Part shown: piece by piece, positions 38 through 14,873 of the stretch
How the letters are laid out: every line of letters starts with the position of its first letter
Numbering within the stretch: the first letter of the stretch is position 1
Origin: Amycolatopsis thermoflava N1165
Lineage (GTDB): Bacteria > Actinomycetota > Actinomycetes > Mycobacteriales > Pseudonocardiaceae
Length of the DNA stretch: 64,000 bases
NCBI RefSeq assembly: GCF_000473265.1
Contig: NZ_KI421511.1
Coordinates: forward strand, 555,980 to 619,979
Direction: 5' to 3'
Notes under the pieces: model-generated
What the model was told of the DNA's origin: nothing
The model's input: only the letters and a program-made list of their open reading frames with translations
Databases searched by the model: none
Translations under genes and position numbers: made by a program

Positions 38-1183
38 GTGCGCCAGTCGATGCAGAAGATCGTCCCCGCGGACGAGCTGCTCTGCCACCAAACCCCCGAG
101 ACGTTCGCGACGATCAGCCAGGCCGACATCTCCTGGACCGAGAAGCTGTGGGCATCGCTGTTCGCCCGCGACGGCTCGCTCCAGGTGGACTGCGGCATCG
201 GCAAGTACCACAACCGCAACGTCATCGACATGTTCGCCGGCATCTCCCGCGGCACCGAGCAGCTGACCGTGCGGGCGAGCCGCCGCCTGGACTCCGACCC
301 GGATCGGGTCGGAGTTGGCCCGCTCGACTACGAGGTCGTCGAACCGCTCAAAGCGGTCCGGTTCGTGCTGCGGGAGAACCACCTGCTGCCCATCCGGTTC
401 GATCTCACCGTCACCGGGGTCCTGCCGCCGTTCCTGGAGGCCAAGGACGGACAACGCGAGCCCGACGGGTTCCGCATCTGCTCCGACCTGCTGCGCTACC
501 ACCAGGCCTCGACGGTATGCGGACGCATCTGGATCGACGGCGAACAGATCGAGGTGCGCGACGACGAGTGGTTCGGATTCCGCGACCACTCGTGGGGCGT
601 GCGGATGGACGTCGGCGAGCCACCGCCGGACGTGCACCGCAGGCAACGGCTCGACGGGAACTTCATCCTCACCTGGAGCCCGATGTGGATGCGAAACCCG
701 GACGGCACCAGCTACGAGGTGCACCACTACCACCAGTGGGTCGACGGGAAGACGACCTACTTCTCCGGGTTCGTCAACCACCCCGACGGCACGCAGACCC
801 CGTTGCACAACGTGCAGGACGAGCTGAAGTTCGACCCGGTCAACCGGCGCCTGCTCGGCGGCAAGATGACCTTCGACGCCGGATGGGGCCAGACCCGCAC
901 CGTCGAGATTGAACCCGCCAGTGACACCGGGTTCCACCTCGGCACCGGACTGTACTTCGGGTTCAAGGGCCACCGGCACGGCACCTGGCTCGGCGAGTCC
1001 CATCTGGACGGTGAGCGCTACGCCGACGTGTCCGATCCGGACACCGCCCGCGAGGTGCACCAGCTGCGGGACTGCGTGATCCGCTGCCGCGAAGGCGACG
1101 CCACTGGCTACGGCATCTTCGAGTCGATGGTCATCGGTGAGCACCCGCGCTACGGGCTGACCCGGGAATCGTCCTTCCTGTAA
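38..1183 (+). CDS. CrtC/lipocalin-like DUF7064-type protein
   Basis: This 381-residue protein starts at a GTG preceded by a good ribosome site (AGGAAGGAGG). It has no signal peptide and no membrane segment. Tryptophan- and histidine-rich strands such as WFGFRDHSWGVR (about residues 185-196) and HHYHQWVDG resemble the hydroxyneurosporene-synthase-like double-lipocalin proteins that actinobacteria carry beside lipid, terpenoid or steroid catabolic genes. The substrate is unknown. It converges on the LuxR gene and shares a bidirectional terminator with it. Its closeness to the carboxylase operon suggests, but does not prove, a role in handling the same hydrophobic substrate. The family assignment is from remembered motifs only. 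Confidence 0.6.
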   Translation: MRQSMQKIVPADELLCHQTPETFATISQADISWTEKLWASLFARDGSLQVDCGIGKYHNRNVIDMFAGISRGTEQLTVRASRRLDSDPDRVGVGPLDYEVVEPLKAVRFVLRENHLLPIRFDLTVTGVLPPFLEAKDGQREPDGFRICSDLLRYHQASTVCGRIWIDGEQIEVRDDEWFGFRDHSWGVRMDVGEPPPDVHRRQRLDGNFILTWSPMWMRNPDGTSYEVHHYHQWVDGKTTYFSGFVNHPDGTQTPLHNVQDELKFDPVNRRLLGGKMTFDAGWGQTRTVEIEPASDTGFHLGTGLYFGFKGHRHGTWLGESHLDGERYADVSDPDTAREVHQLRDCVIRCREGDATGYGIFESMVIGEHPRYGLTRESSFL

Positions 1184-1236: not shown

Positions 1237-2070
1237 TCAGATCCGCGACGAGCGGGCCAGCAACGCCAGCTCCATCCGCGACTGGCACCCGGTCGCGGAC
1301 AAGATCCGGCTCACGTACTTCTTCACGCTGTCCTCAGCCAGCGACAGCGTGTCGGCGATCTGCGCGTTGGAGAACCCGTCCGCCACGAGCTGCACGACCT
1401 GCCGCTGCCGCTCGGACAACCGCCCCAGCGCGGCCTGCGGGCGCGACACCGGAAGGCCCCGACAGATCACCGACAACTGCCTGCTCAGCAACCGCAGCGT
1501 CGACAGCTCGGACACGCCCAGCTTGTCCTCCTGAGGGTCGAACATGCCCACCAGGGCGGTGTGCCCGCCGGGCAGTTCCAGGCGCAGCGCGGCCGCCGCC
1601 TCCATACCCCACGTCGAGATCAGGAAATGGCGTACGTAGGCCTCCGCCGACGCGGGCAGCGGCCCTTGCGAGGTCAGTTCGACCAGCGAGGACACTCCAC
1701 TGGACACCAGCTGGCGCATCGCCGCCGGCGTGCCGAACACGTCGTAGCGGGCCCAGCGGTCCTGGTACTCCGGCAGCATCTTCGCCGTCTTGCCCTCGGT
1801 GAGCGGCGTGACGTCACCGAAGACGTTGTGGAACGTGGCGCCGGCGAAGAACGACACGTGTTCGAGCGCGAAGTGTTCACGCAGCGCGTCGACGACGCTT
1901 TCCTTGAAATCCACCACGCACGCGGCGGTGTCGCAGCACTCGAGGACACCGAAAGCCCGTTCGTAGTCGCCGGTGCGCAGGCTGGTTCGTTTCGGGGAAC
2001 GAGCCCGGCGCTGCGGGGACGTGGCCGTCTTCGTCGATGCCGGACTGTCCACCAACGTGGACTGGGTCAC
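1237..2070 (-). CDS. LuxR-type transcriptional regulator
   Basis: The 277-residue protein ends in a clear LuxR/NarL helix-turn-helix (about residues 213-270, LSERQRQVVQLVADGFSNAQ onward). The N-terminal half is a GAF-like or otherwise unassigned sensor region rather than a receiver domain: no phosphorylation Asp pattern is evident. It is transcribed divergently from the swivel-protein gene at 2133, with about 60 bp between starts, and so is the obvious candidate regulator of the carboxylase operon. The start is a GTG; an internal start is possible. A decayed relative lies at 22065-22600, sharing the VKKYV motif and an identical 19-bp DNA stretch. Confidence 0.85.
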   Translation of the reverse strand: MTQSTLVDSPASTKTATSPQRRARSPKRTSLRTGDYERAFGVLECCDTAACVVDFKESVVDALREHFALEHVSFFAGATFHNVFGDVTPLTEGKTAKMLPEYQDRWARYDVFGTPAAMRQLVSSGVSSLVELTSQGPLPASAEAYVRHFLISTWGMEAAAALRLELPGGHTALVGMFDPQEDKLGVSELSTLRLLSRQLSVICRGLPVSRPQAALGRLSERQRQVVQLVADGFSNAQIADTLSLAEDSVKKYVSRILSATGCQSRMELALLARSSRI

Positions 2071-2132: not shown

Positions 2133-2852
2133 ATGTCCGAATCGACGGTGAGTTCCCCCAAATGGGGATCGACGGAAATGCTGCCGTTACCGGGACGGTT
2201 CAACGGTGCCTTGCGTGCACTGGCCGCGCGGCGGTTCGCGGCGACCGGCGCGCGGTGGAAGGACGTGGTGTTCGAGCGGCAGTTCGACCTGTTCTCCCTC
2301 GCCGACGCGCGCGCGGTCGAGCAGGAAGCGCTCGACGAGGGCTACCGGTTCGACTTCTCCGCGACGGTGTCGCTGGAGTCCGAGCCGGACAAGTACAAGT
2401 GCCCTGAGCGCGAGACGCCCGCCTTCACCGACGGCGGCACCAACGCCGACGGCCGCAGGCAGGTCGGCGTCGGCGACAACGTCATCCGCAAGTCAGCGAC
2501 CGTCACCGGCCCGGTCGCGCGGATCTCCAGGATCGAACAGGTGATGGGCTACCTCGCCGACGGCATCCCCGAAGGCACCATCGCCGTGATCGACGATTCC
2601 GGCGGCACCCTGACCGCGCCGATCATCGAGGGCTTCGCCGGCGTCATCTGCCTTGGCGGCACCGTTCGGTCCCACCTGGGAATCCTGGCCCGCGAGTACG
2701 ACGTGCCGACCCTGATGAACTGCAAGATCGACACCCTCAGCGACGGCGATGTCGTCGAGCTGGAGGTGACCGCGGCACCCCCCGCGGCCGACGCGTACGA
2801 GACCGGCGACACCGGGCACGCCCGGATCTGGCTGGTCGGGAACGAGGGCTGA
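2133..2852 (+). CDS. Stand-alone PEP-utilising swivelling (phosphohistidine) domain protein
   Basis: The 239-residue protein starts at ATG 2133, which has GAGGTGG just upstream; an in-frame upstream start lacks such a site. The C-terminal half carries the phosphohistidine motif GGTVRSHLGILAREYDVP, with the candidate phospho-acceptor at His181. It has no ATP-grasp domain and no PEP-binding barrel, so it can only act as a phosphoryl carrier with partners. The N-terminal 100 residues are unassigned. It is the first gene of the operon, 3 bp before the 523-residue unknown protein. Split dikinases such as phenylphosphate synthase use comparable separate pieces; that parallel is inference. Confidence 0.75.
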   Translation: MSESTVSSPKWGSTEMLPLPGRFNGALRALAARRFAATGARWKDVVFERQFDLFSLADARAVEQEALDEGYRFDFSATVSLESEPDKYKCPERETPAFTDGGTNADGRRQVGVGDNVIRKSATVTGPVARISRIEQVMGYLADGIPEGTIAVIDDSGGTLTAPIIEGFAGVICLGGTVRSHLGILAREYDVPTLMNCKIDTLSDGDVVELEVTAAPPAADAYETGDTGHARIWLVGNEG

Positions 2853-2855
2853 ACC

Positions 2856-4427
2856 ATGGCGGAGCTGAACTACCGGTCCCTGCTGGAGACCAACAACTAC
2901 CTGCGCACCCTCTCCGACACCACGTACTGGCTGTGCATCACGCGCACCGTGCAGGAGTCGAAGTTGTTCCCGATGAACCCCTACATGCTGCTGAGCTACC
3001 TCAACTCGTTCTACCGGCTGCCCACGCTGCTGCGCGAGATCGACGCCGCGACCCCGGCCGAGGAGCTCGGCGACCGCGCCCGCGAGGTCAGCCTCAAGGT
3101 CGACACCGTCAACGCCGCGTGGGGCATGCCCGCGTTCTACCTCATCGGCCGCGAGATGCTGGTGAACTGGGGCCTGCTGCGGCCCGGCGACGCCGTGGAG
3201 GACGTCGTCGACGTGCTCGACTTCTCGCGCCGGTTCAACCTGGCCTACCACCGCACCGACGGGCACATCACCAACAAGGAGTTCGGCGACCGCAGCCAGT
3301 TCCTGCCCGAGCGCACCCTGCAGGTGTTCGAGGCCGACCTGCACGGCGTCACCCCTGGCGACCGCCTGCACACCGCCGCGACCAAGCTGGTGGCGCAGCT
3401 GTCGCAGTACGCGTTCCTCGCGCACTGCGAATGCCGCATCGGGCTGCACAACAGCGGGCCGTACAACTTCGGCGAGGGCCGCCAGCTGATCGTGCGGGAC
3501 TTCTTCGACCTCACCGAGGGCGACTACCCGTGGCTCGACGGCATCGCCACGCGCCTGCCGGTCAACAACCTCACGATCCCGATCGTGTTCAAGGACACGA
3601 ACTTCCACCTCATGGACGACTGGGCCTCGTTCGAAGCCGAGCCCAGCTACAACGCCGCCAACATCGCCGCGGTCGGGATGTACACATCGGATGCCCTGAC
3701 CGACGGTTACGTCCCGGTCGGGATGGACAACGCCGACACGCTGGCCGAAACCATGGAGCAGTACCGCGAAATCCTCAACGAGGCCACCGCGGACCTGTGG
3801 AAGCGCATCGCCACCTGGACGCGCGAGCAGATGATCGACGCCGGTGCGCTGGTGTATTCCTCGGTGGCCAAGGACTTCGCCCACCTCGCCGGCACCTACC
3901 GGCAGGAGGACTGGCTCTCCCTCGACGACCGCGTGCAGCGGTTCAAACCGCTGATGAACGACGAGTACGGGCGCGACAACCTCGGCGAAATGGTGGGGCT
4001 GCTGGGTTTCCCGCACCAGAAGACCAGCGAGTACAGCATGGCCCGCTACTCCGGGCTCAACCAGAACATGCTCACCGGCATCCCGTACTCGGTGCTCACC
4101 GACGACGACTACGCGCCGACCGCGGGCTCGACGCTGTCCGGATCGAGCAGCCTGCCCGCCAAGAACGGGTTGTGGACGACCAGCGCGGGCCGGATCGACC
4201 TGGACGAGTACAACCGCAGGGCGCGCGGGTTCACCCCCGCGGTGCTGCAGGGCGCGAACCGCTACCGCGACGAGGAATGGGTCAAGTGGCACCACGGCAG
4301 CGCCGAGGCCGACGAGCTCTACCGGCTGGCCCAGCGCGGCTCCCGCAACCTCGAGGGCCGCGGCTCGGGCCTGCGCCGCGCCGACCTGCCCGGCGCCGTC
4401 GAGGGGACCAGCGGTGCAGATCGGTGA
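2856..4427 (+). CDS. Conserved protein of unknown family, 523 aa, in carboxylase operon
   Basis: I do not recognise this soluble 523-residue protein. It has no signal peptide or membrane segment. It is rich in His, Asp, Asn and Tyr clusters (AYHRTDGHITNKEFGDR near residue 130, HCECRIGLHNSGPYNFGEGR near 190), which look like a buried polar or active site. It is squeezed between the swivel protein (3-bp gap) and the CoA ligase (14-bp overlap), so it is surely co-translated with them. The dikinase in this operon lacks the usual PEP/pyruvate barrel, so this protein could supply the acceptor-substrate-binding domain. That is inference from context. Confidence 0.6.
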   Translation: MAELNYRSLLETNNYLRTLSDTTYWLCITRTVQESKLFPMNPYMLLSYLNSFYRLPTLLREIDAATPAEELGDRAREVSLKVDTVNAAWGMPAFYLIGREMLVNWGLLRPGDAVEDVVDVLDFSRRFNLAYHRTDGHITNKEFGDRSQFLPERTLQVFEADLHGVTPGDRLHTAATKLVAQLSQYAFLAHCECRIGLHNSGPYNFGEGRQLIVRDFFDLTEGDYPWLDGIATRLPVNNLTIPIVFKDTNFHLMDDWASFEAEPSYNAANIAAVGMYTSDALTDGYVPVGMDNADTLAETMEQYREILNEATADLWKRIATWTREQMIDAGALVYSSVAKDFAHLAGTYRQEDWLSLDDRVQRFKPLMNDEYGRDNLGEMVGLLGFPHQKTSEYSMARYSGLNQNMLTGIPYSVLTDDDYAPTAGSTLSGSSSLPAKNGLWTTSAGRIDLDEYNRRARGFTPAVLQGANRYRDEEWVKWHHGSAEADELYRLAQRGSRNLEGRGSGLRRADLPGAVEGTSGADR

Positions 4428-5883
4428 CCTGATCCGCCGGGCCGGCCGCCAGTTCGGGACCGCGCCCGCCCTCATCGACGGCGACCGTGCGGTGAGCTTC
4501 GCCGAGTTCGACGAGCTCACCGACCGCCTCGGCAACGCACTGCTGGCCCGCGGCCTGGCGGCGGGGGACCGGGTCGCGGTCCTCATGCCCAACGGCATCG
4601 ACGGCGTGGTCGTCTACTACGCGCTCGCCAAGGCCGGGCTGGTGCGAGTGCCGCTCAACAGCCGGGAGACCGCGCACGAACTCGCCTACAAGATCGAGGA
4701 CTCCCAGGCCCGTGCGCTGGTCCACGCCGGGGAGGCGCCCGCGCCGGTGGAGGTGATGATCCCGGCGGACGGGCTGCCGGACCTGATCGCCGCCGCCCCG
4801 GCCGCCCCCTGCGACGTGCGCCGCGACCCGGACGCGCCGCTACGGCTGGCCTACACCGGCGGCACCACCGGCAAACCCAAGGCCGTCGTGCTGACCACCC
4901 GCAGCGAACTGGCCGAGGTGGCGAACTTCCTGGTCGACCTGCTGCCCAACCTGCACCCCGGCTCGGTGATGCTGCACGCCGCGCCGATCACGCACGGCAG
5001 CGGCGCGTTCTTCCTGCCGCACCTGGTCAAGGGCGCCCCGAACGTGATCCTGCCGAAGTTCTCGCCCGAGGCGTTCCTGGACGCGGCGAGCAAGTACCGC
5101 GCGACCTCCACGTTCATGGTGCCGACCATGATCGCGATGCTGCTGGAGGACCCGGCGACCGCTTCGGCGGACCTCGCGCTGGAGCGGCTGTGCTACGGCG
5201 GCGCGCCGATCGCGACCACCGTGCTGCAGCGCGGGATCGACACGCTCGGGCCGGTGTTCACCCAGCTCTACGGGCAGGCCGAGGCGCCGCTGGCGATCAC
5301 CTGCCTGCAGCCGTGGGAGCACACCCCGGACCGGCTCACCGCCGCAGGCAAGCCGTACACGTTCGTCGAGGTTCAGGTCCGCGACATCGACGGCAAGGTA
5401 CTCGCGCCGGGTGAGGTCGGCGAGGTCCTGACCCGCGGCCCGCACACCATGAGCCGCTACTGGCGGCGCCCCGAAGCCACCGCCGAGACCGTCGAAGACG
5501 ACGGCTGGCTGCACACCGGTGACATCGGCCGCTGGGACGACGAGGGCTACCTGCACCTGCTCGACCGGCGCCACGACGTGATCATCAGCGGCGGGTTCAA
5601 CGTCTACCCGCGCGAGGTCGAGGACGCGCTGCTCGGCCATCCCGCCGTCGTGTCCGCCGCGGTCGTCGGCCTGCCGGACGAGAAGTGGGGCGAACGGGTC
5701 GCCGCCGCAGTCGTCACCCGCGCCGCGGCCGAGCCCGGCGACCTCATCGCCTTCTGCGCCGAGCGCCTGGCCGGGTTCAAACGGCCCCGCACTGTGGAGA
5801 TCTGGCCGGACCTGCCCATCAGCCCGGTCGGCAAGTCACTGCGCCGCGAGGTGCGCGACCGCATGGTCGCCGCGCGCGGCTGA
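4414..5883 (+). CDS. AMP-forming acyl-CoA synthetase
   Basis: This 489-residue member of the class I adenylate-forming family ligates a carboxylic acid to CoA through an acyl-adenylate. The P-loop-like motif YTGGTTGKPK, the A5-type YGQAE, the GWLHTGDIG motif and the C-terminal PVGKSLRREV with the adenylation lysine are all present, so it should be active. The GTG start overlaps the preceding gene. In this operon a plausible job is activating the 3-oxo acid made by the carboxylase, ahead of the thiolase. Substrate identity cannot be read from sequence. Confidence 0.9.
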   Translation: MQIGDLIRRAGRQFGTAPALIDGDRAVSFAEFDELTDRLGNALLARGLAAGDRVAVLMPNGIDGVVVYYALAKAGLVRVPLNSRETAHELAYKIEDSQARALVHAGEAPAPVEVMIPADGLPDLIAAAPAAPCDVRRDPDAPLRLAYTGGTTGKPKAVVLTTRSELAEVANFLVDLLPNLHPGSVMLHAAPITHGSGAFFLPHLVKGAPNVILPKFSPEAFLDAASKYRATSTFMVPTMIAMLLEDPATASADLALERLCYGGAPIATTVLQRGIDTLGPVFTQLYGQAEAPLAITCLQPWEHTPDRLTAAGKPYTFVEVQVRDIDGKVLAPGEVGEVLTRGPHTMSRYWRRPEATAETVEDDGWLHTGDIGRWDDEGYLHLLDRRHDVIISGGFNVYPREVEDALLGHPAVVSAAVVGLPDEKWGERVAAAVVTRAAAEPGDLIAFCAERLAGFKRPRTVEIWPDLPISPVGKSLRREVRDRMVAARG

Positions 5884-5904
5884 CCCACACCGAAAGGACT
5901 TCCG

Positions 5905-6513
5905 ATGCTCGACCCCTACGAGCTCACCGTGCACTCCCTGACCCTGCGCCAGCTCGGCACCGCCGAGCAGCTGGCCGACATCACCGGCCAGGACGTCGCC
6001 GAGGTCGAAGCCGGCCTGGAGAAGGCGGTCGCCGCCGGCTTGGTGATGGCCGCGCGCGGCAGCTACCTGATCACCCCGGCGGGCCGCGAGCACCTCGACG
6101 GCATCTACCCGCGCGCGTTCGAAGGGCTGCGCGCCGACCCGCAGGTCGCTGCGGCGATGGAGGCGTTCGAGACCGGCGTCAACAAGCAGGTCCTCGCGCT
6201 GACCACCGACTGGCAGACCATAGAGGTCGACGGCGCGCGCGTCACCAACGACCACGGCGACGCCGACTACGACGCCACGATCATCGACAAGCTCGGCCGG
6301 GTGCAGGAGAAGACCGCGAAGGTCTTGCGGCCGCTGTCCGACGCCGACCCGCTCGTGGACCGGTTCCTCGACCGCATCGGCACGGCGCTGACTCGTGCCG
6401 AGGGCGGCGAGACCGACTACGTCAGCGGGGTGCGCGTCGATTCGGTGCACACGGTGTGGTTCCAGATGCACGAGCACATCCTGCGCCTGACCGGGCGGGA
6501 GCGTCCGGAATGA
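5905..6513 (+). CDS. Small winged-helix/helical protein linked to dikinase
   Basis: The first ~70 residues of this 202-residue protein read like a winged-helix (MarR-type) domain. The rest is helical with a conserved-looking end, VDSVHTVWFQMHEHILRL. The ATGA overlap with the dikinase gene at 6510 points to stoichiometric production. From memory, similar small proteins accompany barrel-less PPDK-like proteins in mycobacteria and streptomycetes. It may act as a helical lid or adaptor of the dikinase rather than as a DNA-binding regulator. No enzymatic motif is visible. Confidence 0.55.
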   Translation: MLDPYELTVHSLTLRQLGTAEQLADITGQDVAEVEAGLEKAVAAGLVMAARGSYLITPAGREHLDGIYPRAFEGLRADPQVAAAMEAFETGVNKQVLALTTDWQTIEVDGARVTNDHGDADYDATIIDKLGRVQEKTAKVLRPLSDADPLVDRFLDRIGTALTRAEGGETDYVSGVRVDSVHTVWFQMHEHILRLTGRERPE

Positions 6514-8240
6514 CCGCCACGACGGGGTTCCGCTGGCTGGTCGTCCCCGAGGCGGACATGCCCGAGCCGAGCCGGGAACTCGTCGGCGGCAAGGCGTGGA
6601 GCCTGTGGCGGATGCGTTCCCTCGGGCTGCGCGTGCCACCCGCGTTCGTCGTCACCACCAAGGCGTGCGCGGCCTACTTCGAAGACGACGACCTGCCCGA
6701 AGGCCTGTCCGATGAGCTGACCGCCGGCATCCGGCACATCGAGGACCAGCTGGGCCGTACCTTCGGCGGCACCGAGCGCCCGCTGCTGGTCTCGGTCCGC
6801 TCCGGCGCGGCGATCAGCATGCCCGGGATGATGGACACCATCCTCGACCTCGGCTGCAACGACAAGGTCGAGGGAGCGCTGGCGGCCGAATCCGGCGACC
6901 CGGAGTTCGCCGCCGAGGTGCACCGCCGCTTCACCGGGTTCTACGGGCGGCTGGTGCTCGGCTGCACCGAGGACCTGGAGGACCTGCCCGACACCGCCGC
7001 CGTGCGCGCCGCGATCGCCGAGGATGTCGGTGAAGCCGTGCCTGCCGACCCGTGGGAGCAGCTGCGGGCCGCGGTGGCCGCCGTGTTCCGCTCCAGCCGG
7101 TCTCGGCGGGCCATGGCCTACCGCAAGCACTACGGCATCCCGGAGGACCTCGGTACCGGGGTCACGATCCAGGCGATGGTGTTCGGCAACCTCGACGACG
7201 ACTCCGGCACCGGCGTGCTGTTCACCCGCAACCCCGTCGACGGCACGCGCGAACCCTACGGCGAGTACCTGCCGCGCGGGCAGGGCGAGGACGTCGTGTC
7301 CGGCCGCGTCACGCCGAAACCGCTGGCGCACCTGGCACAGCGCTGGCCGCGAGTGCACGCCGAGCTGCTCGCCGCCGCGGATTGCCTCGACCGCGAGGGT
7401 CGCGACGCGCAGGACATCGAGTTCACCGTGCAACGCGGTGAGCTGTTCCTGCTGCAGTCCCGGCCGGCCAAGCGGACGGCCCGCGCCGCGGTGCGAATCG
7501 CGGTCGACCTGGTCGACGAGGGGGTGCTCGACCCGGCCGAAGCGCTGACCAGGGTGACCGCGGAGCAGGTCCGCACCCTGTTGCGACCGGAGATCGCGCC
7601 CGGCGCCGCCGAGGGCGCGGAGCTGCTGGCCGAAGGGGTCAGCGCGAGCCCGGGCGTGGCCACCGGCGTCGTGGTGGACACGCCGGAGGCGGCGCAGGCC
7701 CACCCCGGCTGCGTGCTGGTGCGCAAGTCCACCAGCCCGGACGACGTGCACGGCATGATCGCCGCCGCGGCCGTGGTCACCGAGCAGGGCGGCGCGACCT
7801 CGCACGCCGCGGTGGTCAGCAGGGCGCTGGACACCCCGTGCGTGGTCGGGTGCGGCGCGGGCACCGTGGACACCCTGACCGGCCGCACCGTGACGGTCGA
7901 CGCGACCGCGGGCCGGGTCTACGCGGGCGAGCTGGCGACCTCGGCGGTCGACGAGCGCGAGGACGCCGACCTGCAGCGGCTCACCGAATGGGCGGAGGCC
8001 GCCTCGCCGGTCCGGGCGCGGGCCGACGGTGCCGTGGAGCCGGTCTTCGACGGCGACGCGGCTGACGTCGGCGAGGAGCTGCCTGCCATCCCGCTCGGCA
8101 CGAAGACCGTGCGCGGGGCGGTGTTCTGCACTCCGGATGGGGTGCGGGCCGCTCTCGACGCCGGCGTCGAAGTGATTCTCACGCCGCACCGGCTGCCGGT
8201 CCTGCTCGCCGCCATCGCTCACGACAGGAGGACGTCATGA
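6510..8240 (+). CDS. PPDK-type dikinase lacking the PEP/pyruvate barrel
   Basis: The 576-residue protein starts at ATG 6510, inside the stop of the previous gene. The PPDK ATP-grasp signature (VGGKAWSLWRM; SVRSGAAISMPGMMDTILDL) and the QSRPAKRT segment are followed by a swivelling domain with GGATSHAAVVSRA (His432). A full PPDK is about 880 residues; the C-terminal PEP-binding barrel is absent. The enzyme can therefore phosphorylate its own histidine from ATP but needs another protein to bind the acceptor. Actinobacterial short PpdK proteins share this layout. In this operon the acceptor may be an enolisable ketone or an alcohol (inference). Confidence 0.85.
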   Translation: MTATTGFRWLVVPEADMPEPSRELVGGKAWSLWRMRSLGLRVPPAFVVTTKACAAYFEDDDLPEGLSDELTAGIRHIEDQLGRTFGGTERPLLVSVRSGAAISMPGMMDTILDLGCNDKVEGALAAESGDPEFAAEVHRRFTGFYGRLVLGCTEDLEDLPDTAAVRAAIAEDVGEAVPADPWEQLRAAVAAVFRSSRSRRAMAYRKHYGIPEDLGTGVTIQAMVFGNLDDDSGTGVLFTRNPVDGTREPYGEYLPRGQGEDVVSGRVTPKPLAHLAQRWPRVHAELLAAADCLDREGRDAQDIEFTVQRGELFLLQSRPAKRTARAAVRIAVDLVDEGVLDPAEALTRVTAEQVRTLLRPEIAPGAAEGAELLAEGVSASPGVATGVVVDTPEAAQAHPGCVLVRKSTSPDDVHGMIAAAAVVTEQGGATSHAAVVSRALDTPCVVGCGAGTVDTLTGRTVTVDATAGRVYAGELATSAVDEREDADLQRLTEWAEAASPVRARADGAVEPVFDGDAADVGEELPAIPLGTKTVRGAVFCTPDGVRAALDAGVEVILTPHRLPVLLAAIAHDRRTS

Positions 8241-8761
8241 CTAAGCCCGAGCGGGTAACCCAGCGGGAGGTGCGGGAGATCCTGCGCACGTTCCAGGAGT
8301 CCGGCTGGTCCGCGATGACGCTGGAACTGGACCGTATGCGGATCACCGTCGGCAAGGACGGCCCGCCCGCGGCGGCTGCCCCGCGCCAGGCCGCCGCGGC
8401 CAATGTCGAGGCGGTCACGATGGTAGCCGAGCCGGCGGCCCCGGCACCACCGCCGGCCCCCGCCGCGGTGGCTCCGCGACCGCCGGCTTCATCGCCGGCC
8501 GTCGACACCACCGGGTGCGTCGAGGTGCGGTCGCCCGCGGTCGGGTCGTTCTGGGTGTCGCCGAGCCCGGGCGAGCCGCCGTTCGTGCAGGTCGGCCAGC
8601 AGGTGCAGGCGAACGACCAGCTCGCGATCGTCGAGGTCATGAAGCTGATGAACCCGGTCGTCGCGCCCCAGGCGGGGGAGATCGTGCAGGTGTGCGCCGC
8701 GAACGCCGAGCTCGTCGAGTTCGACCAGGTGCTGTTCCTGATCAGGCCGGGCGATGAGTAG
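8237..8761 (+). CDS. accB: Biotin carboxyl carrier protein
   Basis: The 174-residue protein has an N-terminal helical segment, an Ala/Pro-rich swinging linker (about residues 43-95) and a C-terminal biotinyl domain with the biotin lysine in EVMKLMN. It is typical of AccB-type carriers. The N-terminal overlap with the dikinase and the C-terminal overlap with the biotin carboxylase place it in the same translational unit. It carries carboxybiotin between the carboxylase at 8754 and the transferase at 10124. Confidence 0.93.
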   Translation: MTKPERVTQREVREILRTFQESGWSAMTLELDRMRITVGKDGPPAAAAPRQAAAANVEAVTMVAEPAAPAPPPAPAAVAPRPPASSPAVDTTGCVEVRSPAVGSFWVSPSPGEPPFVQVGQQVQANDQLAIVEVMKLMNPVVAPQAGEIVQVCAANAELVEFDQVLFLIRPGDE

Positions 8762-10127
8762 GCCGCTCCGCCGGGTGCTGGTGGCCAACCGCGGGGAGAT
8801 CGCCGTCCGCGTGATCCGGACCTGCCGCGACCTCGGCATCGAGACCGTCGTGATCACGTCCACAGTGGACCGCGACGGGCTCGCAGCCCGGATGGCCGAT
8901 CGGGCCGTGTGCATCGGCCCGGCCCCGGCCACTGCGAGCTACCTCGCGATCCCGTCGGTGCTCAGCGCCGCGCTGGGCGCCGGCTGCGACGCCGTCCACC
9001 CCGGCTACGGCTTCCTGTCGGAGAACCCCGACTTCGCCGCCGCGTGCGTCGCCGAGGGGCTCACCTTCGTCGGTCCCCGGCCGGAAGCGGTGGCGGGCGC
9101 GGGGGACAAGGCCCGTGCCCGCGAGCTGGCCCGCTCGGCCGGAATCCCCGTCCTGTCCGGCTCACCGGTGCTCGGCACGGCCGGGGACGCCACGCGCGCC
9201 GCCGCCGAACTCGGGTACCCGGTGCTGGTCAAAGCGGCGTCCGGCGGCGGCGGGCGCGGGATGTCGGTCGTGGAGGACGAGACCGAACTGCGCCGCCGCT
9301 GGCCCTCGGCCGCGGCGGAGGCCCAGTCGGCCTTCGGCGACGGACGGCTGTACGTGGAACGGTTCATCCGCCGCGCCCGGCACATCGAGGTGCAGGTGCT
9401 GGGCGACAAGCACGGCGCCGTCATCCACCTCGGCGAACGCGACGGCACGCTGCAGCGGCGCCACCAGAAGGTGGTGGAGGAGTCCCCGGCACCGAACCTG
9501 CCCGAGACCGTGCGCGCGGACATCCGGCGCAGCGGGGTGCGCTTCGCCGAAGCCCTCGGGCTGGACAGCGCTGGCACGGTCGAGTTCATCTACGACGCCG
9601 ACACCGGCGACTACGCCTTCCTCGAATTCAACGCCCGCATCCAGGTCGAGCACCCGGTCACCGAGATGGTGACCGGCGTGGACCTCGTCGCCGAGCAGTT
9701 GCGCTCGGCGACGGGCGAGCCGCTGCGGCTGGCCCAGGACGACATCCGGCTCGGCGGCCACGCGATCGAGGTGCGGCTGACCACCGAGGACCCGGCGCGC
9801 GGGTTCATCCCCAGCCCGGGCACGGTGCGGACCTGGGCACCGCCCGCGGGGGAGGGGATCCGGGTCGACACCCACTGCGAGCCCGGCTACGTGGTGACGC
9901 CGTACTACGACTCGCTGCTGGCCAAGGTGATCGCCCACGGCCCGGACCGGGACACCGCCGCCGACCGGATGGTCGCCGCCCTCGGCGAGCTGCGGGTGTC
10001 CGGGGTGCCCACCACCGCCGGGTTCGCCCGGGCCACCCTCGACCACCCCGACTTCCGCGCCGGCGACGTCACCACCGACTGGATCGGCAGGCGCGGCCTG
10101 CCCGACTACCTGGAGAAGAGCGCATGA
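8754..10127 (+). CDS. accC: Biotin carboxylase
   Basis: This 457-residue biotin carboxylase is of normal length for the stand-alone family. It has the glycine-rich ATP-grasp loop KAASGGGGRGM, the catalytic segment ERDGTLQRRHQKVVEE and the NARIQVEHPVTE motif. It makes carboxyphosphate from bicarbonate and ATP and loads CO2 on the biotin of the adjacent carrier protein. The gene overlaps its neighbours by a few bases on both sides. It is presumably dedicated to this operon rather than to fatty-acid synthesis, because no acyl-CoA-type transferase subunits are linked. Confidence 0.93.
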   Translation: MSRPLRRVLVANRGEIAVRVIRTCRDLGIETVVITSTVDRDGLAARMADRAVCIGPAPATASYLAIPSVLSAALGAGCDAVHPGYGFLSENPDFAAACVAEGLTFVGPRPEAVAGAGDKARARELARSAGIPVLSGSPVLGTAGDATRAAAELGYPVLVKAASGGGGRGMSVVEDETELRRRWPSAAAEAQSAFGDGRLYVERFIRRARHIEVQVLGDKHGAVIHLGERDGTLQRRHQKVVEESPAPNLPETVRADIRRSGVRFAEALGLDSAGTVEFIYDADTGDYAFLEFNARIQVEHPVTEMVTGVDLVAEQLRSATGEPLRLAQDDIRLGGHAIEVRLTTEDPARGFIPSPGTVRTWAPPAGEGIRVDTHCEPGYVVTPYYDSLLAKVIAHGPDRDTAADRMVAALGELRVSGVPTTAGFARATLDHPDFRAGDVTTDWIGRRGLPDYLEKSA

Positions 10128-11620
10128 GCTACCTGGACCGCGCCCCGCGCAACCCCGACGGCAGCCGCCGCCGGATCGAGATCGTCGACCAGACGCTGCG
10201 CGACGGACCGCAGAGCTGGTGGGGCATGCGGCTGCGCAAGGACATGGGCCTGCCGATGGCCGCGGAACTGGACCGCACCGGGTTCCACACCATCGACCTC
10301 GTCGGCAGCTCGATCTTCGAGGTCCTCGTGCGGCATTGCAAAGAGGACCCGTGGGAGCAGCTGATCTCACTGTCGCGGGCCATGCCGGAGACCACCGTGC
10401 GCGCGGGCACCCGCAGCAACGGCATCGTCACCTTCGGGCTGACCGCGGACAGCGTGATGGACCTGTGGGTGCAGCGCCTGTGCGCGCACGGCATCGGCAG
10501 CTTCTGGATCTACGACGGGCTGTTCAACACCGACAAGATCGGTCGCCTGGTCAAGACCGTGCAGGCCGAAGGCGCGCAGGCGCTACCGTGCATCCTCTTC
10601 GCCGACAGCCCGTACCACACCGACGAGTACTACGCGGCCCGCACGCGGGAGCTGGTCGCCCTCGGCGCCGACGGCATCGAGCTGGAGGACGCGGCCGGTC
10701 TGCTCACGCCGGGGCGCACCTGCACGCTCGTCGCGGCCATCAAGCAGGCGGCCGGGGACCTGCCGGTGGAGATCCACTTCCACAGCAACAACGCGCTCGC
10801 CCCGCTGAACTACCTGGAAGGGCTGCTCGCCGGGGCCGACCGGGTGCACACCGTGAGCCGCCCGCTGGCCGCCGGGGTTTCGCTGCCCTCGACCGAGAAC
10901 ACCGTCGCGAACCTGCGGTACGCGGGGTTCGACGTGGACCTCGACGAGTCCCGGTTCGGCCCCGTCGAGGAGCACCTGCTGCGCGTGGCCGAGTACGAGG
11001 ACCTGCCGGTGGGGCAGCCGGCCGAGTACTCGCTGTTCCAGTACCGGCACCAGCTGCCGGGCGGGATGGCGGGGACGTTCAAGGCGCAGCTGCGCGACCG
11101 GGGCATGGAAGAGCGCTTCGAGGAGGTGCTTGACGAGATGTCCCGGGTGCGCGAGGAGCTCGGGTATCCGGTCATGGCCACGCCGTTCTCGCAGCTGGTC
11201 GGCACCCAGGCGGTGCTCAACGTGGTGACCGGCTCGCGCTACTCGGTGGTGCCGGACGAGGTGCTGATTTACGCGCACGGCTTCTACGGCAATCCAGTCG
11301 CGCCGATCGACGAGGACGTGCTCGACAAGATCATGACTTCGCCGAAGGCGAAGAGCTACGACAGCTGGGAGCCGCCGCAGCCGAGCCTGGCCGAGCTGCG
11401 CGCGCGGTTCGGCCAGGTCAGCGACGACGAGCTGATCCTGCGATTGCTGGTGCCGGAGAACGACATCGACGTCATGCGCGCCACGCCGCAGCGCCACCGC
11501 GACTTCGCCCCGACGAGCAAGCAGGTGCGGTTCATCCGCGAGCTGGTGGAAACCTCGGTGGGCGCCTACCTGCACATCGAGGCGGGCGACTTCGCGCTCA
11601 CCCTTGAAGGGGGCCACTGA
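10124..11620 (+). CDS. Biotin-dependent carboxyltransferase, pyruvate carboxylase/oxaloacetate decarboxylase type
   Basis: The 498-residue protein starts at ATG 10124, overlapping accC. An HMGL-like TIM barrel (DQTLRDGPQSWWGMRLR near residue 22, metal-type HFHSNN at 218-223) is followed by the PYC/OADA conserved region (roughly 300-470). Several positions differ from true pyruvate carboxylase: usually DTTLRDAHQS, and HTHD where this protein has HFHSN. This suggests a different carbonyl acceptor. Acyl-CoA carboxylases use an unrelated carboxyltransferase fold, so the acceptor is likely a free keto compound or its enol form. The specific acceptor is not deducible. Confidence 0.85.
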   Translation: MSYLDRAPRNPDGSRRRIEIVDQTLRDGPQSWWGMRLRKDMGLPMAAELDRTGFHTIDLVGSSIFEVLVRHCKEDPWEQLISLSRAMPETTVRAGTRSNGIVTFGLTADSVMDLWVQRLCAHGIGSFWIYDGLFNTDKIGRLVKTVQAEGAQALPCILFADSPYHTDEYYAARTRELVALGADGIELEDAAGLLTPGRTCTLVAAIKQAAGDLPVEIHFHSNNALAPLNYLEGLLAGADRVHTVSRPLAAGVSLPSTENTVANLRYAGFDVDLDESRFGPVEEHLLRVAEYEDLPVGQPAEYSLFQYRHQLPGGMAGTFKAQLRDRGMEERFEEVLDEMSRVREELGYPVMATPFSQLVGTQAVLNVVTGSRYSVVPDEVLIYAHGFYGNPVAPIDEDVLDKIMTSPKAKSYDSWEPPQPSLAELRARFGQVSDDELILRLLVPENDIDVMRATPQRHRDFAPTSKQVRFIRELVETSVGAYLHIEAGDFALTLEGGH

Positions 11621-12033
11621 TGTCCGGGCTGGGCGTGGACCGTCCCATCAAACGCCGGGCCGGATCGGCGGTCGGCGGCCTGCCGGTCGCCGACTCCCGC
11701 CCGGTCCTCGCCGGGGACGCGGTGCTGGGCTCGCGCTGTACCGCATGCCGGTACCCGTCGGCGCAGCGGGAGCTGCCGTGGTGCCCGGTCTGCTACGCTC
11801 CGGCGGCGGAGGAGCGGTTCGCGGTGACGGGTGCGGTGTGGTCGTCGACGGTCGTGGAAATCCCGGTCGGCACCCGGAAACCGCCGTTCGGGCTGGCCTA
11901 TGTGGACCTCGACGACGGCCCGCGCGTGCTGGTCCACCTCGCCGAGCCGGCCGTGCTCGGCCCCGGCGCGCGGCTGCGGATCACCGGAACCGACGACGGT
12001 GACCTGGTCGCGGCCATGGAGGTGCGGGCGTGA
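11620..12033 (+). CDS. DUF35-type Zn-ribbon/OB-fold protein
   Basis: The 137-residue protein contains a rubredoxin-like zinc ribbon (CTAC...CPVC, about residues 40-56) followed by an OB-fold (about 65-135). Such proteins form complexes with thiolase-like enzymes in archaeal and actinobacterial pathways. The gene overlaps the carboxyltransferase stop by one base and the thiolase start by four, as expected for a partner of the thiolase. Confidence 0.88.
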   Translation: MSGLGVDRPIKRRAGSAVGGLPVADSRPVLAGDAVLGSRCTACRYPSAQRELPWCPVCYAPAAEERFAVTGAVWSSTVVEIPVGTRKPPFGLAYVDLDDGPRVLVHLAEPAVLGPGARLRITGTDDGDLVAAMEVRA

Positions 12034-13169
12034 CCGAGCCGATGCTGTGGGGCGTGGGCACGTCGGCCTACGGCAGGTTCCCGGACCGCCGGGTCGAAGC
12101 GCTCGCCTGGGAAGCCGTGGCCGAAGCGGTGCGGGACGCGGGTGTGTCGCCGGGGGAGATCGACGCGATCGTGGTCGGTTCTGTGTTCGGCCCGCCGGGC
12201 GTGGCCACCCGGGTCCAGCGGGGTCTTGGCATCCCCGGCGTTCCGATGTGGACCGTTGAGAACGCCTGCGCCAGCGGGACGAGCGCCTACCACGAGGCTG
12301 CGGAGGCGGTTCGCCTCGGCCGGTTCGGATGCGTGCTGGTGCTGGGCGTCGAGCAGATGTCGACGCTGTTCTCCGGGGCGATCGTGCCGGAGGCGACCGA
12401 CCCGGAGGGCGCGTCGTCGCTGCCGCTGCCCGGGTTGTACGCGCTGCAGGCGCAGCGATACGTCGCCGAGTTCGGGGTGACGCCGGAGCAGCTCGCGGCG
12501 GTCGCGGTGAAGAACAAGCGCAACGGGCTGGACAACCCGCGCGCCCAGCTGCGCTCGGCCGCGCCGACGGTGGCGGAGGTGCTGGCCTCGCGGATGATCG
12601 CGCGGCCGCTGACGTTCCTGCAGTGCTGCCCCACCAGCGATGGCGCCGGGGCGGCGATCGTCGGCGGCGACCGCGGTAACCGTCGCGACCTGCGGATCGA
12701 GGCCTCGGCGATGGTGTCCGGCGCGCTGTGGGACCACCGCAGCGCGGACGTGTGGGGCTTCGCCAGCGTCGCCCGGGCCGCCGAGGCGGCGTTCGCGCAG
12801 GCCGGCCGCACCCCCGCCGAGATCGACCTGCTCGAGGTGCACGACGCGTTCACCATCGGCGAGATCATCACCCTGGAAGCAGTCGGGATCGCGCCGCGAG
12901 GCGAGGGCGCGGACCTGGCTCCCTCGGGACACACCGCTCGTGACGGCGCCCAGCCGGTCAACCCCAGCGGTGGTCTGCTGTCGCGCGGACACCCCCTGGG
13001 CGCGACCGGCATGGCGCAGCTGGCCGAGATCGCCTGGCAGCTGCGCGGCGAGGCCGGGTCCCGCCAGGTCGCGCGGCGCCGCGTCGGCCTGGTAGAGACG
13101 ATGGGCGGGGGAGCGGCGGGCATGGACGGCAACGCCTGCGTCGTCACGATCCTCGCGCCGCAGACGTGA
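12030..13169 (+). CDS. Thiolase-family protein
   Basis: The 379-residue thiolase starts at a GTG overlapping the DUF35 gene. The nucleophile Cys80 (ENACASGTS), His271 (EVHDAFTIGE) and His321 (SGGLLSRGHPLGATG) are all present, so it should be catalytically competent. It would cleave a 3-oxoacyl-CoA to acetyl-CoA plus a shortened acyl-CoA. Together with the CoA ligase and the carboxylase this fits a chain ketone, 3-oxo acid, 3-oxoacyl-CoA, acyl-CoA. It resembles the SCP2/lipid-transfer thiolase subfamily that pairs with DUF35 proteins. Confidence 0.9.
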   Translation: MTEPMLWGVGTSAYGRFPDRRVEALAWEAVAEAVRDAGVSPGEIDAIVVGSVFGPPGVATRVQRGLGIPGVPMWTVENACASGTSAYHEAAEAVRLGRFGCVLVLGVEQMSTLFSGAIVPEATDPEGASSLPLPGLYALQAQRYVAEFGVTPEQLAAVAVKNKRNGLDNPRAQLRSAAPTVAEVLASRMIARPLTFLQCCPTSDGAGAAIVGGDRGNRRDLRIEASAMVSGALWDHRSADVWGFASVARAAEAAFAQAGRTPAEIDLLEVHDAFTIGEIITLEAVGIAPRGEGADLAPSGHTARDGAQPVNPSGGLLSRGHPLGATGMAQLAEIAWQLRGEAGSRQVARRRVGLVETMGGGAAGMDGNACVVTILAPQT

Positions 13170-13900
13170 GCCTGTATCCGGGGCTGCTGGGGTTTCGCGA
13201 CCTCGGTGGCCTGCGTTTGAGTGACGGCGGCCGGGTGCGGCACGGTGTGCTGTTCCGCAGCGGCACGCCGCAGTTCTTCGACGCGGACACCGCGCGGGCC
13301 CCGGTGTCCGACACCGGGACCCGCTCCACGGTGGACCTGCGGCTGCGGCAGGAGATCGCCCGGGAGGGGCGGGGCCCGCTCGACGAGCTGGGTGTTCGCC
13401 ACATCCCGGCGTCCTTCCGGATCGGTGTGGTTGCCGAGGAGGCCACGGTGGCGCCGATGGACCGCGACGCCCCCCTCGTCACCCGCTACCTCGGGAACCT
13501 GGAGGAAGACGCCGCCACGGTCGTGTCCCTCGTGCCGCGGCTGCTGGAGCCGGGTGTGCTGCCTGCGCTCGTGCACTGCACGGTCGGCAAGGACTCCACG
13601 GGCGTCGCGGTGGCACTCGCCCTGGACGCGGTGGGGGATCGCCGCGAGGACATCGCGGCGGACTACGCACGCGATCCGGAGGACGTGGCGGCCGGGATGG
13701 ACCGGTTGCGGAACGTGGCCTCCTACGTGCGGCCGTGGCGATCTACACACCCGAGGGCTGGACCGCGCCGCCCGAGGTCGTGCTCCGGTTCCTGGGCCAG
13801 GTCGATGCCCGGCACGGCGGGTCGCTGGCGCTGATGCGCGAGCACGGGGTCACCCGATGGCGACATCACCAAGCTGCGCGAGGTGCTCGCGGGCACCACC
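13166..13900 (+). pseudogene. Tyrosine/serine phosphatase-like gene, frameshifted
   Basis: The first ~190 residues match the short protein-tyrosine-phosphatase family (GFRDLGG..., then HCTVGKDSTGV). The CX5R loop has Ser in place of the invariant Arg. The frame breaks near 13740, after SYVRP: the sensible continuation (AIYTPEGWTAPPEVVLRFLG) is in another frame. It breaks again near 13858, where VTDGDITKLREVLAG is recovered after removing one base. The gene overlaps the thiolase stop by four bases, so it was once the last gene of the operon. It is probably inactive now, or the assembly carries indels. Confidence 0.7.
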
Positions 13901-14393: not shown

Positions 14394-14873
14394 TCAGACC
14401 GAAGCGGTAAGGGCGGCGCCGTTGTGGAAGCGGCTATGGTGGAACACCAACGGCGCGGTGCCGTCGCCGGTGGCCAGCGCGACCACCCGGCCCACGACGA
14501 TGGTGTGGTCGCCGGCCGGGTGCTCGTCGGTGATCTCGCACTCCAGGTGCGCGTGCACCCCGTCGAGCACCGGGCTGCCGAGCACGCCCGGCCGGTGCGG
14601 CACCCCGGCGAACCGGTCGCCGGGGCCGCTGAATCGCCGGGCGATGTCCTCCTGCCCGGCCGCCAGGACGTTCGCGCAGAACCGTCCCGCCGCGTGGATG
14701 CGCGGCCACGTCGTGGACGTGTTGCCCGCGCAGAACAACACCAGCGGCGGCGCGAGCGACACCGAGGTGAACGAGCTGACCACCATCCCGGCCCCGCCGG
14801 CCGCGGTCACCACGACCACCCCGGTGGTGAACCGGCTCAGGGTGGCGCGGTAGGTGGCGCTGTCGAAATTCAT
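14394..14873 (-). CDS. Flavin reductase (HpaC-like domain protein)
   Basis: This 159-residue protein of the flavin-reductase-like split-barrel family would supply reduced FMN or FAD to a partner monooxygenase. Visible motifs are FTTGVVVVTA near the start, SFTSVSLAPPLVLFCAG and GRVVAL. The start at 14873 overlaps the stop of the RibB-like gene by four bases. The nearest flavoprotein partner candidate in the window is the acyl-CoA-dehydrogenase-like protein at 18744, since HsaA/DszC-type oxygenases need such a reductase. The link is inferred. Confidence 0.85.
   Translation of the reverse strand: MNFDSATYRATLSRFTTGVVVVTAAGGAGMVVSSFTSVSLAPPLVLFCAGNTSTTWPRIHAAGRFCANVLAAGQEDIARRFSGPGDRFAGVPHRPGVLGSPVLDGVHAHLECEITDEHPAGDHTIVVGRVVALATGDGTAPLVFHHSRFHNGAALTASV

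What the first reader, a model, noticed from the sequence alone, without database searches (positions are those of the whole stretch)
2133..13169. Possible undescribed biotin-dependent ketone carboxylation system coupled to a split dikinase
Seen: one continuous, overlapping operon with a phosphohistidine swivel protein, a 523-residue unknown, CoA ligase, a small helical protein, a barrel-less PPDK, BCCP, biotin carboxylase, PYC/OADA-type transferase, DUF35 and thiolase. Known: acetone and acetophenone carboxylases pay ATP to activate a ketone before carboxylation, then use a CoA ligase and thiolase; phenylphosphate synthase is a split PEP-synthase-like kinase; PYC-type transferases act on keto/enol substrates. 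Inference: the split dikinase makes an enol phosphate, or otherwise activates the ketone, and the biotin system carboxylates it to a 3-oxo acid, which is ligated to CoA and cleaved. I know of no described system with this exact combination.
Basis: partly seen in the sequence, partly recalled or inferred. Interest (0 to 1): 0.8.

Follow-up and report, generated by a model that had tools for sequence, protein, structure and literature searches.

The report
Kinase-plus-biotin-carboxylase ketone degradation operon
A soil bacterium carries a gene set that probably spends ATP to phosphorylate a ketone, adds carbon dioxide to it with a biotin enzyme and then cuts it for food; the general idea is already known from lignin-ketone degradation, but the kinase here is built from different and largely undescribed parts.

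Summary
The unit is larger: a tyrosine-phosphatase-family gene (damaged in this genome) overlaps the thiolase, and two more swivel/acceptor sets lie upstream, on three genes just outside the window.

The logic is not undescribed. The Hpe pathway of Rhodococcus rhodochrous GD02 (PNAS 2022; JBC 2025) phosphorylates 4-hydroxyacetophenones with a split dikinase, carboxylates them with a homologous biotin enzyme, dephosphorylates, CoA-ligates and cleaves. The carboxyltransferase here groups with Hpe-type ones, apart from the pyruvate/oxaloacetate enzymes tested.

It is still not an Hpe operon. Its dikinase has a truncated PPDK (architecture of tuberculosis VadK), a small partner, a separate swivel and a substrate-side protein with no detected relative; phosphatase, ligase and cleaving enzyme are of other kinds. 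The carboxyltransferase has Glu for the metal-bridging Lys and Val for the proton-shuttle Thr in 26 of 26 window-type copies.

Best reading: a parallel [quoted passage not shown] ketone pathway driven by a modular dikinase. Substrate and site of phosphorylation are unproven. New variant of a known kind.

The parts
50..1183 (+). DUF7065-like protein (377 aa), last gene of the upstream acceptor block
   Evidence: PF23213 only at E 0.014, below cut-off; matched in 27 of 28 window-type loci (not in the short contig L040) and in 0 of 10 second-type loci
1237..2070 (-). LuxR-type regulator between the two gene blocks
   Evidence: PF00196 GerE; matched in 27 of 28 window-type loci
2133..2852 (+). swC: stand-alone phosphohistidine swivel protein; His181 in GGTVRSH
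   Evidence: PF00391; His invariant in 15 aligned copies; motif in 37 of 37 called copies
2856..4427 (+). helC: 523-aa presumed substrate-side (acceptor) protein of the dikinase
   Evidence: no Pfam/NCBIfam family over cut-off; no PDB sequence relative; no Foldseek match at E<=0.001, model pLDDT 72.7
4414..5883 (+). AMP-forming acyl-CoA ligase
   Evidence: PF00501/PF13193
5905..6513 (+). small partner of the truncated PPDK (C-terminal region around SxHTVWFExHEDLLRxLGRER)
   Evidence: family alignment of 18; co-occurrence with the acceptor family
6510..8240 (+). truncated (barrel-less) PPDK: ATP-grasp plus its own swivel (TEQGGATSH)
   Evidence: PF01326, PF00391; NF004531 761.5 bits, cut-off 456; aligned to 9PZL/1KBL up to just beyond the swivel
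8237..8761 (+). biotin carboxyl carrier protein
   Evidence: PF00364, TIGR00531, EVMKL
8754..10127 (+). biotin carboxylase
   Evidence: PF02786, PF00289, PF02785; 50.6% identical over 439 columns to the Hpe-type homologue of L063
10124..11620 (+). carboxyltransferase of the ketone-type clade; E188 and V252 at the Lys and Thr positions of PYC/OADA
   Evidence: PF00682, PF02436; tree of 47 rows; site counts
11620..12033 (+). OB-fold (DUF35/ChsH2-like) thiolase partner
   Evidence: PF01796
12030..13169 (+). SCP2/BbsB-type thiolase
   Evidence: PF22691; nearest solved relatives SCP2-thiolase 6hsj, E 1.6e-61, and benzoylsuccinyl-CoA thiolase 7pxp, E 1e-57; NACASG and HDAF motifs
13166..13834 (+). 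tyrosine-phosphatase-family gene, damaged here (P-loop Arg is Ser; frame broken near the C-terminus)
   Evidence: PF13350; P-loops of the other copies; frames set beside the relative in L065

Best explanation
A catabolic operon for a ketone that works like the Hpe pathway but with a different kinase. (1) The truncated PPDK, with the small partner, takes phosphate from ATP on its swivel histidine. (2) The phosphate passes, directly or through the separate swivel protein swC (His181), to a substrate held by the 523-aa protein; most likely it goes to a hydroxyl, probably phenolic, of a hydroxy-ketone. (3) BCCP, BC and CT carboxylate the carbon next to the ketone, giving a 3-oxo acid. (4) A phosphatase removes the phosphate. 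(5) The CoA ligase makes the 3-oxoacyl-CoA. (6) Thiolase with its OB-fold partner cuts it to acetyl-CoA (or a homologue) and an acyl-CoA. Shown here: families, motifs, gene linkage, co-occurrence and the place of the CT in a tree. Inferred by analogy with Hpe: order of steps, carboxylation of a phosphorylated ketone, role of the phosphatase. Unknown: the substrate and the function of the two further acceptor sets.
Against: No activity, substrate or phosphorylated intermediate is known. The acceptor proteins show no relation to HpeH (hhalign probability 0.2; no blastp hit) or to any solved structure, so 'substrate-binding' is inferred from linkage to the swivel alone. The CT lacks two catalytic features that the Hpe/Acv rows keep: Lys to Glu and Thr to Val, 26 of 26. 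Three related CTs with no kinase gene recognised in their stretches (L060 and two more of this genome, some 40-55 kb upstream) share the Glu and have Pro for Thr, so carboxylation need not depend on the kinase. No tyrosine-type phosphatase follows the thiolase in 9 of 25 window-type loci, none was recognised in L108 (where only some ORFs were scanned), and the window's own copy looks damaged. BC was not found in the stretches held for L048, L049 and L066. The one studied truncated PPDK, VadK, is reported as a regulatory kinase (PMC13400623).
Confidence: 0.62

Rival explanations
1. Enol-phosphate route: the dikinase phosphorylates the enol oxygen of a plain ketone, as PPDK does with pyruvate, and the carboxyltransferase uses the enol phosphate directly, losing phosphate during carboxylation.
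For: The donor is a PPDK by family, and PPDK makes an enol phosphate. The CT keeps Arg97, at the position that binds the pyruvate carboxylate (recalled), which 4 of 4 Hpe/Acv rows have lost, and lacks the Thr that shuttles the proton in pyruvate carboxylase (recalled role), as if no deprotonation were needed.
Against: The pyruvate-binding barrel is missing. Phosphatase genes accompany many clusters. The nearest biochemical precedent, Hpe, phosphorylates a phenol, carboxylates only the phosphorylated ketone and removes the phosphate afterwards (PMC9618137). CTs without a nearby kinase gene keep the same Arg and also lack the Thr.
Confidence: 0.18
2. The kinase and carboxylase act on different compounds: the dikinase phosphorylates an alcohol, phenol or CoA intermediate elsewhere in the pathway, and the carboxylase acts on an unphosphorylated ketone. 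(This overlaps with the other rivals, so the odds need not sum to one.)
For: The acceptor/small/PPDK set also occurs with no carboxylase recognised in the stretch: L067, L068, L109-L111, and L057 beside a thiolase and P450. Ketone-type CTs occur without kinase, in Cnuibacter beside 3-oxoacid CoA-transferase and thiolase. HsaA/HsaB-like monooxygenase genes and APH-type phosphotransferase/acyl-CoA-dehydrogenase genes lie nearby in several loci.
Against: Linkage of the 523-type acceptor to the CT persists in shuffled orders in two subtypes and in an alphaproteobacterium (L054).
Confidence: 0.25
3. The swivel/PPDK part is regulatory, a protein histidine kinase like VadK of the tuberculosis bacterium, and not a metabolic kinase.
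For: VadK is a truncated PPDK that autophosphorylates on His422 and is described as regulating methylcitrate-cycle enzymes; co-expression with its operon partner Rv1126c improves its solubility (PMC13400623, first of 12 parts and found passages read).
Against: Here the PPDK is co-operonic with swivel and acceptor proteins and with catabolic enzymes, in most window-type loci also a phosphatase. Three acceptor sets in one cluster fit substrate handling better (inference).
Confidence: 0.1
4. Ordinary anaplerosis: a split pyruvate carboxylase next to a pyruvate dikinase.
For: Automatic annotation calls related CTs 'carboxyltransferase' or 'pyruvate carboxylase subunit B'.
Against: The CT groups apart from the OadA/PYC rows and lacks their Lys and Thr; the dikinase has no pyruvate barrel; CoA ligase, thiolase and phosphatase have no place in anaplerosis.
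Confidence: 0.03

Closest known systems
Hpe pathway (hpeHICBADEF) of Rhodococcus rhodochrous GD02 and its relative Acv of Sphingobium lignivorans SYK-6
   Same: Split ATP-dependent dikinase with phosphohistidine swivel; homologous BCCP/BC/CT (27.7%, 50.6% and 37.4% identity to the Hpe-like set of L063); phosphatase, CoA ligase and C-C cleaving enzyme in one operon.
   Different: Donor is a truncated PPDK with its own swivel, not a bare ATP-grasp protein; swivel is separate or N-terminal, not C-terminal; acceptor protein shows no homology to HpeH; tyrosine-type phosphatase instead of HAD; ligase only distantly similar; thiolase plus OB-fold partner instead of a hydrolase; CT active site changed at two positions.
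VadK (Rv1127c) with Rv1126c of Mycobacterium tuberculosis
   Different: There it is reported as a regulatory kinase, with no separate acceptor known; here swivel and acceptor genes, three sets of them, sit in the same cluster. Rv1126c itself was not compared with the small family.
Rifampin phosphotransferase, phenylphosphate synthase (PpsAB), CreHI
   Different: No RPH-type substrate domain was recognised (inconclusive), and the functions are spread over four proteins.
Kinase-less CT-accB-accC operons (Cnuibacter, Arthrobacter, Caballeronia)
   Same: CT of the same large clade; Cnuibacter's lies beside 3-oxoacid CoA-transferase and thiolase.
   Different: No kinase gene and no phosphatase among the annotated features of the stretches seen (these gene tables are incomplete); they keep the Lys (3 of 3).
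Acetone and acetophenone carboxylases
   Same: Same overall chemistry proposed: ATP-paid carboxylation of a ketone to a 3-oxo acid.
   Different: Those are not biotin enzymes and are of another protein family (recalled; only listings with starts of abstracts seen). No such family was found among the ten proteins.

Membership tests
Hpe pathway operon | biotin-dependent BCCP/BC/CT of the HpeCBA kind | tested here: met
   Homology to the L063 set and CT tree position; only four Hpe/Acv-type CTs were in the tree, none of them from GD02 itself.
Hpe pathway operon | kinase of HpeH (substrate domain with C-terminal swivel) plus HpeI (ATP-grasp alone, PEP-synthase-like) | tested here: not met
   Donor is PPDK-type with its own swivel; swivel separate (2133-2852) or N-terminal in the fused paralogue; the substrate part of an HpeH-type protein gives no hit with the 523-aa protein.
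Hpe pathway operon | HAD phosphatase HpeD | tested here: not met
   PF13350 tyrosine-phosphatase family instead; no HAD among the operon's proteins.
Hpe pathway operon | HpeE acetoacetyl-CoA-synthetase-type ligase and HpeF beta-ketoacyl-CoA hydrolase | tested here: not met
   Ligase matches the HpeE-like protein of L063 only at E 0.023 in a very small database; OB-fold plus thiolase, and no hydrolase, among the ten proteins.
Hpe pathway operon | phosphorylates and carboxylates hydroxyphenylethanones | not testable with these tools
   needs enzyme assay
Truncated PPDK (VadK/PRK05878) | PPDK ATP-grasp and swivel without PEP/pyruvate barrel | tested here: met
Truncated PPDK (VadK/PRK05878) | phosphorylatable swivel histidine | tested here: met
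   TEQGGATSH, aligned with the PPDK swivel motif; presence of the residue only, phosphorylation not tested
Truncated PPDK (VadK/PRK05878) | adjacent Rv1126c-like partner | tested here: inconclusive
   A small-family gene lies beside truncated PPDKs in the same order, but the Rv1126c sequence itself was not compared.
Pyruvate carboxylase / oxaloacetate decarboxylase CT | metal-bridging (carbamylated) Lys and proton-shuttle Thr | tested here: not met
   Glu and Val in 26 of 26 window-type CTs; Lys in 4 of 4 and Thr in 3 of 4 OadA/PYC rows. The roles of these residues are recalled.
Rifampin phosphotransferase-type small-molecule dikinase | PPDK/RPH-type swivel with catalytic His | tested here: met
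Rifampin phosphotransferase-type small-molecule dikinase | RPH-like substrate-binding domain | tested here: inconclusive
   No match for the 523-aa model (pLDDT 72.7); only residues 1-114 of the fused model were spanned.
Acetone/acetophenone carboxylase (Acx/Apc) | hydantoinase-type subunits | tested here: not met
   no such Pfam family among the ten proteins

The most novel reading that the evidence does not exclude
The cluster encodes a PTS-like catabolic phosphorelay: one ATP-driven histidine phosphocarrier (truncated PPDK plus its small partner) feeds several interchangeable swivel/acceptor modules of a possibly new protein fold, each phosphorylating a different substrate, and one of them prepares a ketone for a biotin carboxylase with a rebuilt active site (Glu in place of the carbamyl-lysine, no proton-shuttle Thr). 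Truncated PPDKs elsewhere, VadK included, would then be the general donors of such relays.
Probability: 0.3. Interest if true: 0.85.

Novelty: new variant of a known kind. Interest (0 to 1): 0.6.

Why it matters
It would show that 'phosphorylate, then carboxylate with biotin' is a more general bacterial way to open ketones, assembled with at least two different kinds of kinase, and not only the lignin-ketone route now known. It gives truncated PPDKs a testable metabolic role and defines two unnamed protein families (the acceptor and the PPDK partner). It also exposes carboxyltransferases that have lost residues thought essential in pyruvate carboxylase.

Tried and rejected
Rejected: ordinary pyruvate carboxylase (tree and active-site residues); plain Hpe operon; Acx-type acetone carboxylase. 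Considered and left open: a link to the acetone carboxylase activity reported in 1999 for Rhodococcus B276 (recalled only; nothing on it was seen in the listings).

Alignment A4 was made with a wrong second row and was not used.

Dropped rows: L032 and L037 were left out of the 523-aa alignment A2, and L023 was replaced by L024 in the swivel alignment A1, because the ranges I gave contained stop codons. The CT tree and site counts (47 rows) took the called CT proteins over 400 aa except the near-identical relative L065, plus one joined and six hand-picked rows. The CTs of L042 (gene calling failed) and L108 (fetched later) and the cut copies of L043, L046 and L107 are not in them.

Gene calls come from a simple script of mine, not an annotation pipeline; it failed on AT-richer L042, for which tblastn was used. 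L107 has the same length and gene content as L046 and is not counted as a separate locus, though it is among the copies. 'Hpe' labels on L062/L063 rest on gene families and order, not on assays. Phosphatase scans were partial: in L108 only two otherwise unassigned ORFs and the thiolase were scanned. The roles of the CT residues (Lys, Thr, Arg) and of the phosphatase P-loop Arg are recalled.

Full report
Observation. The window is G000:C1:555980-619979 of an 8.7 Mb genome. Its closest named matches are Amycolatopsis species (93-94% identity in the 523-aa protein), so I take it as Amycolatopsis by inference. Neighbouring genes overlap or lie at most 21 bases apart. An eleventh gene, a tyrosine-phosphatase-family protein (PF13350), overlaps the thiolase. 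In this genome it looks damaged: its P-loop reads HCTVGKDSTG, whereas the 26 other copies with an HC motif (L107, a duplicate of L046, among them) all read GKDRTG; one further listed row has no HC motif. Its C-terminal part continues in other frames when set beside the relative in L065.

The unit is wider than reported. Upstream, beyond a LuxR-type gene on the other strand, lie a DUF7065-like gene (50-1183) and, just outside the window, a 125-aa swivel gene, a 400-aa acceptor gene and a 535-aa fused swivel-acceptor gene. The two further acceptors are paralogues of the 523-aa protein at 33% and 36% identity over their matches. So one truncated PPDK is accompanied by three swivel/acceptor sets.

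Recurrence. In 18 other genomes of the genus a copy of the 523-aa protein over 90% identical occurs in 3, so the cluster is patchy. A genome scan with the 523-aa protein gave 32 loci; a plasmid search gave two Rhodococcus plasmids with the same operon (pRB98 of R. oxybenzonivorans and pA of R. pyridinivorans P23) and Novosphingobium pSA1. I sort what I looked at into 28 window-type loci (window, L018-L041, L047, L052, L053) and 10 second-type loci (L042-L046, L048, L049, L054, L066, L108; 50-55% identity in the 523-aa protein). In one search, BCCP, BC and CT are present in 26 of 28 window-type loci; the upstream swivel, the 400-aa acceptor and DUF7065 in 27 of 28 (L040 is a short contig); the fused gene at 54% identity or more in 25 of 28 (L036, L038 and L040 give only weak cross-matches). 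In second-type loci CT passes the coverage limit in 9 of 10 and is cut at the contig edge in L046; BC was found in 5 of 10, two of the others (L043, L046) being cut; the upstream DUF7065 is absent (0 of 10); gene order is shuffled. The collections were searched by similarity to this protein, so the counts describe its relatives, not all bacteria.

The kinase. The donor matches full-length PPDKs (E 1.9e-109) far better than PEP synthases (E 1.5e-31) and stops shortly after the swivel. The small 202-aa protein has no family over cut-off but is conserved as a partner across 18 aligned copies, with its most conserved stretch at the C-terminus. In 200 genomes of the order the acceptor family occurs in 7 and small in 37; in all 7, small and a PPDK-family match lie within about 10 kb of an acceptor gene. 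In 396 genomes of the phylum the acceptor occurs in 6, and all 6 have small, which occurs in 32; in three of those six the two lie on different contigs. Small occurs without the acceptor in 30 of the 37, so small plus truncated PPDK looks like the general part and the acceptor like the specific part. A truncated PPDK with a small partner gene is known: VadK and Rv1126c of the tuberculosis bacterium, described as an autophosphorylating regulatory kinase (PMC13400623: first of 12 parts and found passages read).

The carboxylase. In a tree of 47 CT rows the window CT sits with the other ketone-type CTs, divided by a 100/100 branch from three OadA rows and one PYC row; the Hpe/Acv rows and a Cnuibacter-Arthrobacter-Caballeronia clade fall on its side (the root is for drawing only, and some long branches are flagged, the PYC and L062 rows above all). 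At the position of the metal-bridging Lys, 4 of 4 OadA/PYC, 4 of 4 Hpe/Acv and 3 of 3 Cnuibacter-clade rows have Lys; 26 of 26 window-type rows have Glu; the 7 second-type rows have Tyr (4), Glu (2) or Gly (1). At the proton-shuttle Thr, OadA/PYC have Thr in 3 of 4, Hpe/Acv Thr or Ser in 4 of 4, Cnuibacter-clade rows Asn or Ala, window-type Val in 26 of 26, second-type Pro in 7 of 7. The Arg that binds the pyruvate carboxylate is kept in all groups but Hpe/Acv, which have Thr in 4 of 4. These residue roles are recalled. Three CTs with no kinase gene recognised beside them (two of this genome, one of R. opacus G13) share Glu and Pro, so the changes do not track the kinase.

Why a phosphatase matters. 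In Hpe the carboxylated product still bears phosphate and HpeD, a HAD enzyme, removes it (PMC9618137). Here a phosphatase gene lies in 9 of 10 second-type loci but from different families: tyrosine type (L042-L046, L066), His_Phos_1 (L048, L049), SurE on the other strand (L054); none was recognised in L108, where only some ORFs were scanned. L066 also has a HAD-type gene. In window-type loci the tyrosine type follows the thiolase in 16 of 25 with at least 900 bases to look at and not in 9. The three annotated kinase-less CT stretches list no phosphatase, though those gene tables are incomplete. This suggests, without proving, that a phosphate ester outlives the carboxylation, which speaks against an enol phosphate.

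Substrate. Unknown. Genes in this window nearest to the HsaA and HsaB monooxygenase models, below their cut-offs (18744-19925, 14394-14873), and one nearest to HpaB, below its cut-off, in L053 hint at a phenolic ring; APH-type phosphotransferase and acyl-CoA dehydrogenase genes near several clusters hint at a hydroxyacyl-CoA step. Neither is decisive.

Verdict. The system works like the Hpe pathway and shares its carboxylase family, but fails four of the five Hpe features tested (kinase, phosphatase, ligase, cleaving enzyme), so I do not file it as Hpe. It is a new variant of the known phosphorylate-then-carboxylate strategy with a kinase of new composition. Papers: PMC9618137 parts 1-4 of 6 read; PMC12167813 parts 1-4 of 6 read; PMC13101465 passages only; PMC13400623 part 1 of 12 and passages; PMC3182942 passages; all others seen only as search listings.

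Noticed in passing
window 13166-13834: Tyrosine-phosphatase-family gene with Ser at the P-loop Arg position and a frame that breaks near the C-terminus; the relative in L065 (98% identical in the 523-aa protein) has the Arg and an unbroken C-terminus. Decay or assembly error.
   Followed up: partly
L064:375-1838 and L064:15346 into L051:824 (G000:C1:500375 and 515346): Two more carboxyltransferases of the same clade about 40-55 kb upstream of the window, beside enoyl-CoA hydratase, acyl-CoA dehydrogenase and P450 genes, with no kinase gene recognised beside them; one neighbour is nearest to pimeloyl-CoA dehydrogenase (below cut-off), so cyclic ketones are conceivable substrates.
   Followed up: partly
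L067, L068, L109, L110, L111: Swivel, acceptor, small and a PPDK of about 830-850 aa in a row with no carboxylase recognised; the PPDK has a long C-terminal stretch after the swivel with no Pfam match (L109).
   Followed up: partly
L058:9890-12779: Acceptor, swivel and small-like genes on the Methylibium petroleiphilum PM1 plasmid, about 3.5 kb from genes for a cobalamin-dependent CoA mutase with its ligase and MeaB.
   Followed up: no
L074:5947-12631: Cnuibacter plasmid operon of carboxyltransferase, BCCP, BC, biotin transporter, 3-oxoacid CoA-transferase and thiolase: looks like a kinase-free ketone carboxylation pathway.
   Followed up: no
window 14870-15442, L052:10876, L053:36914: A RibB-like DHBP synthase gene lies with flavin reductase and SnoaL/NTF2-type genes near the operon in these three genomes.
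   Followed up: no
G000:C1:7333679-7335944 (L106): A second small plus truncated-PPDK pair in this genome with no acceptor gene recognised nearby.
   Followed up: partly
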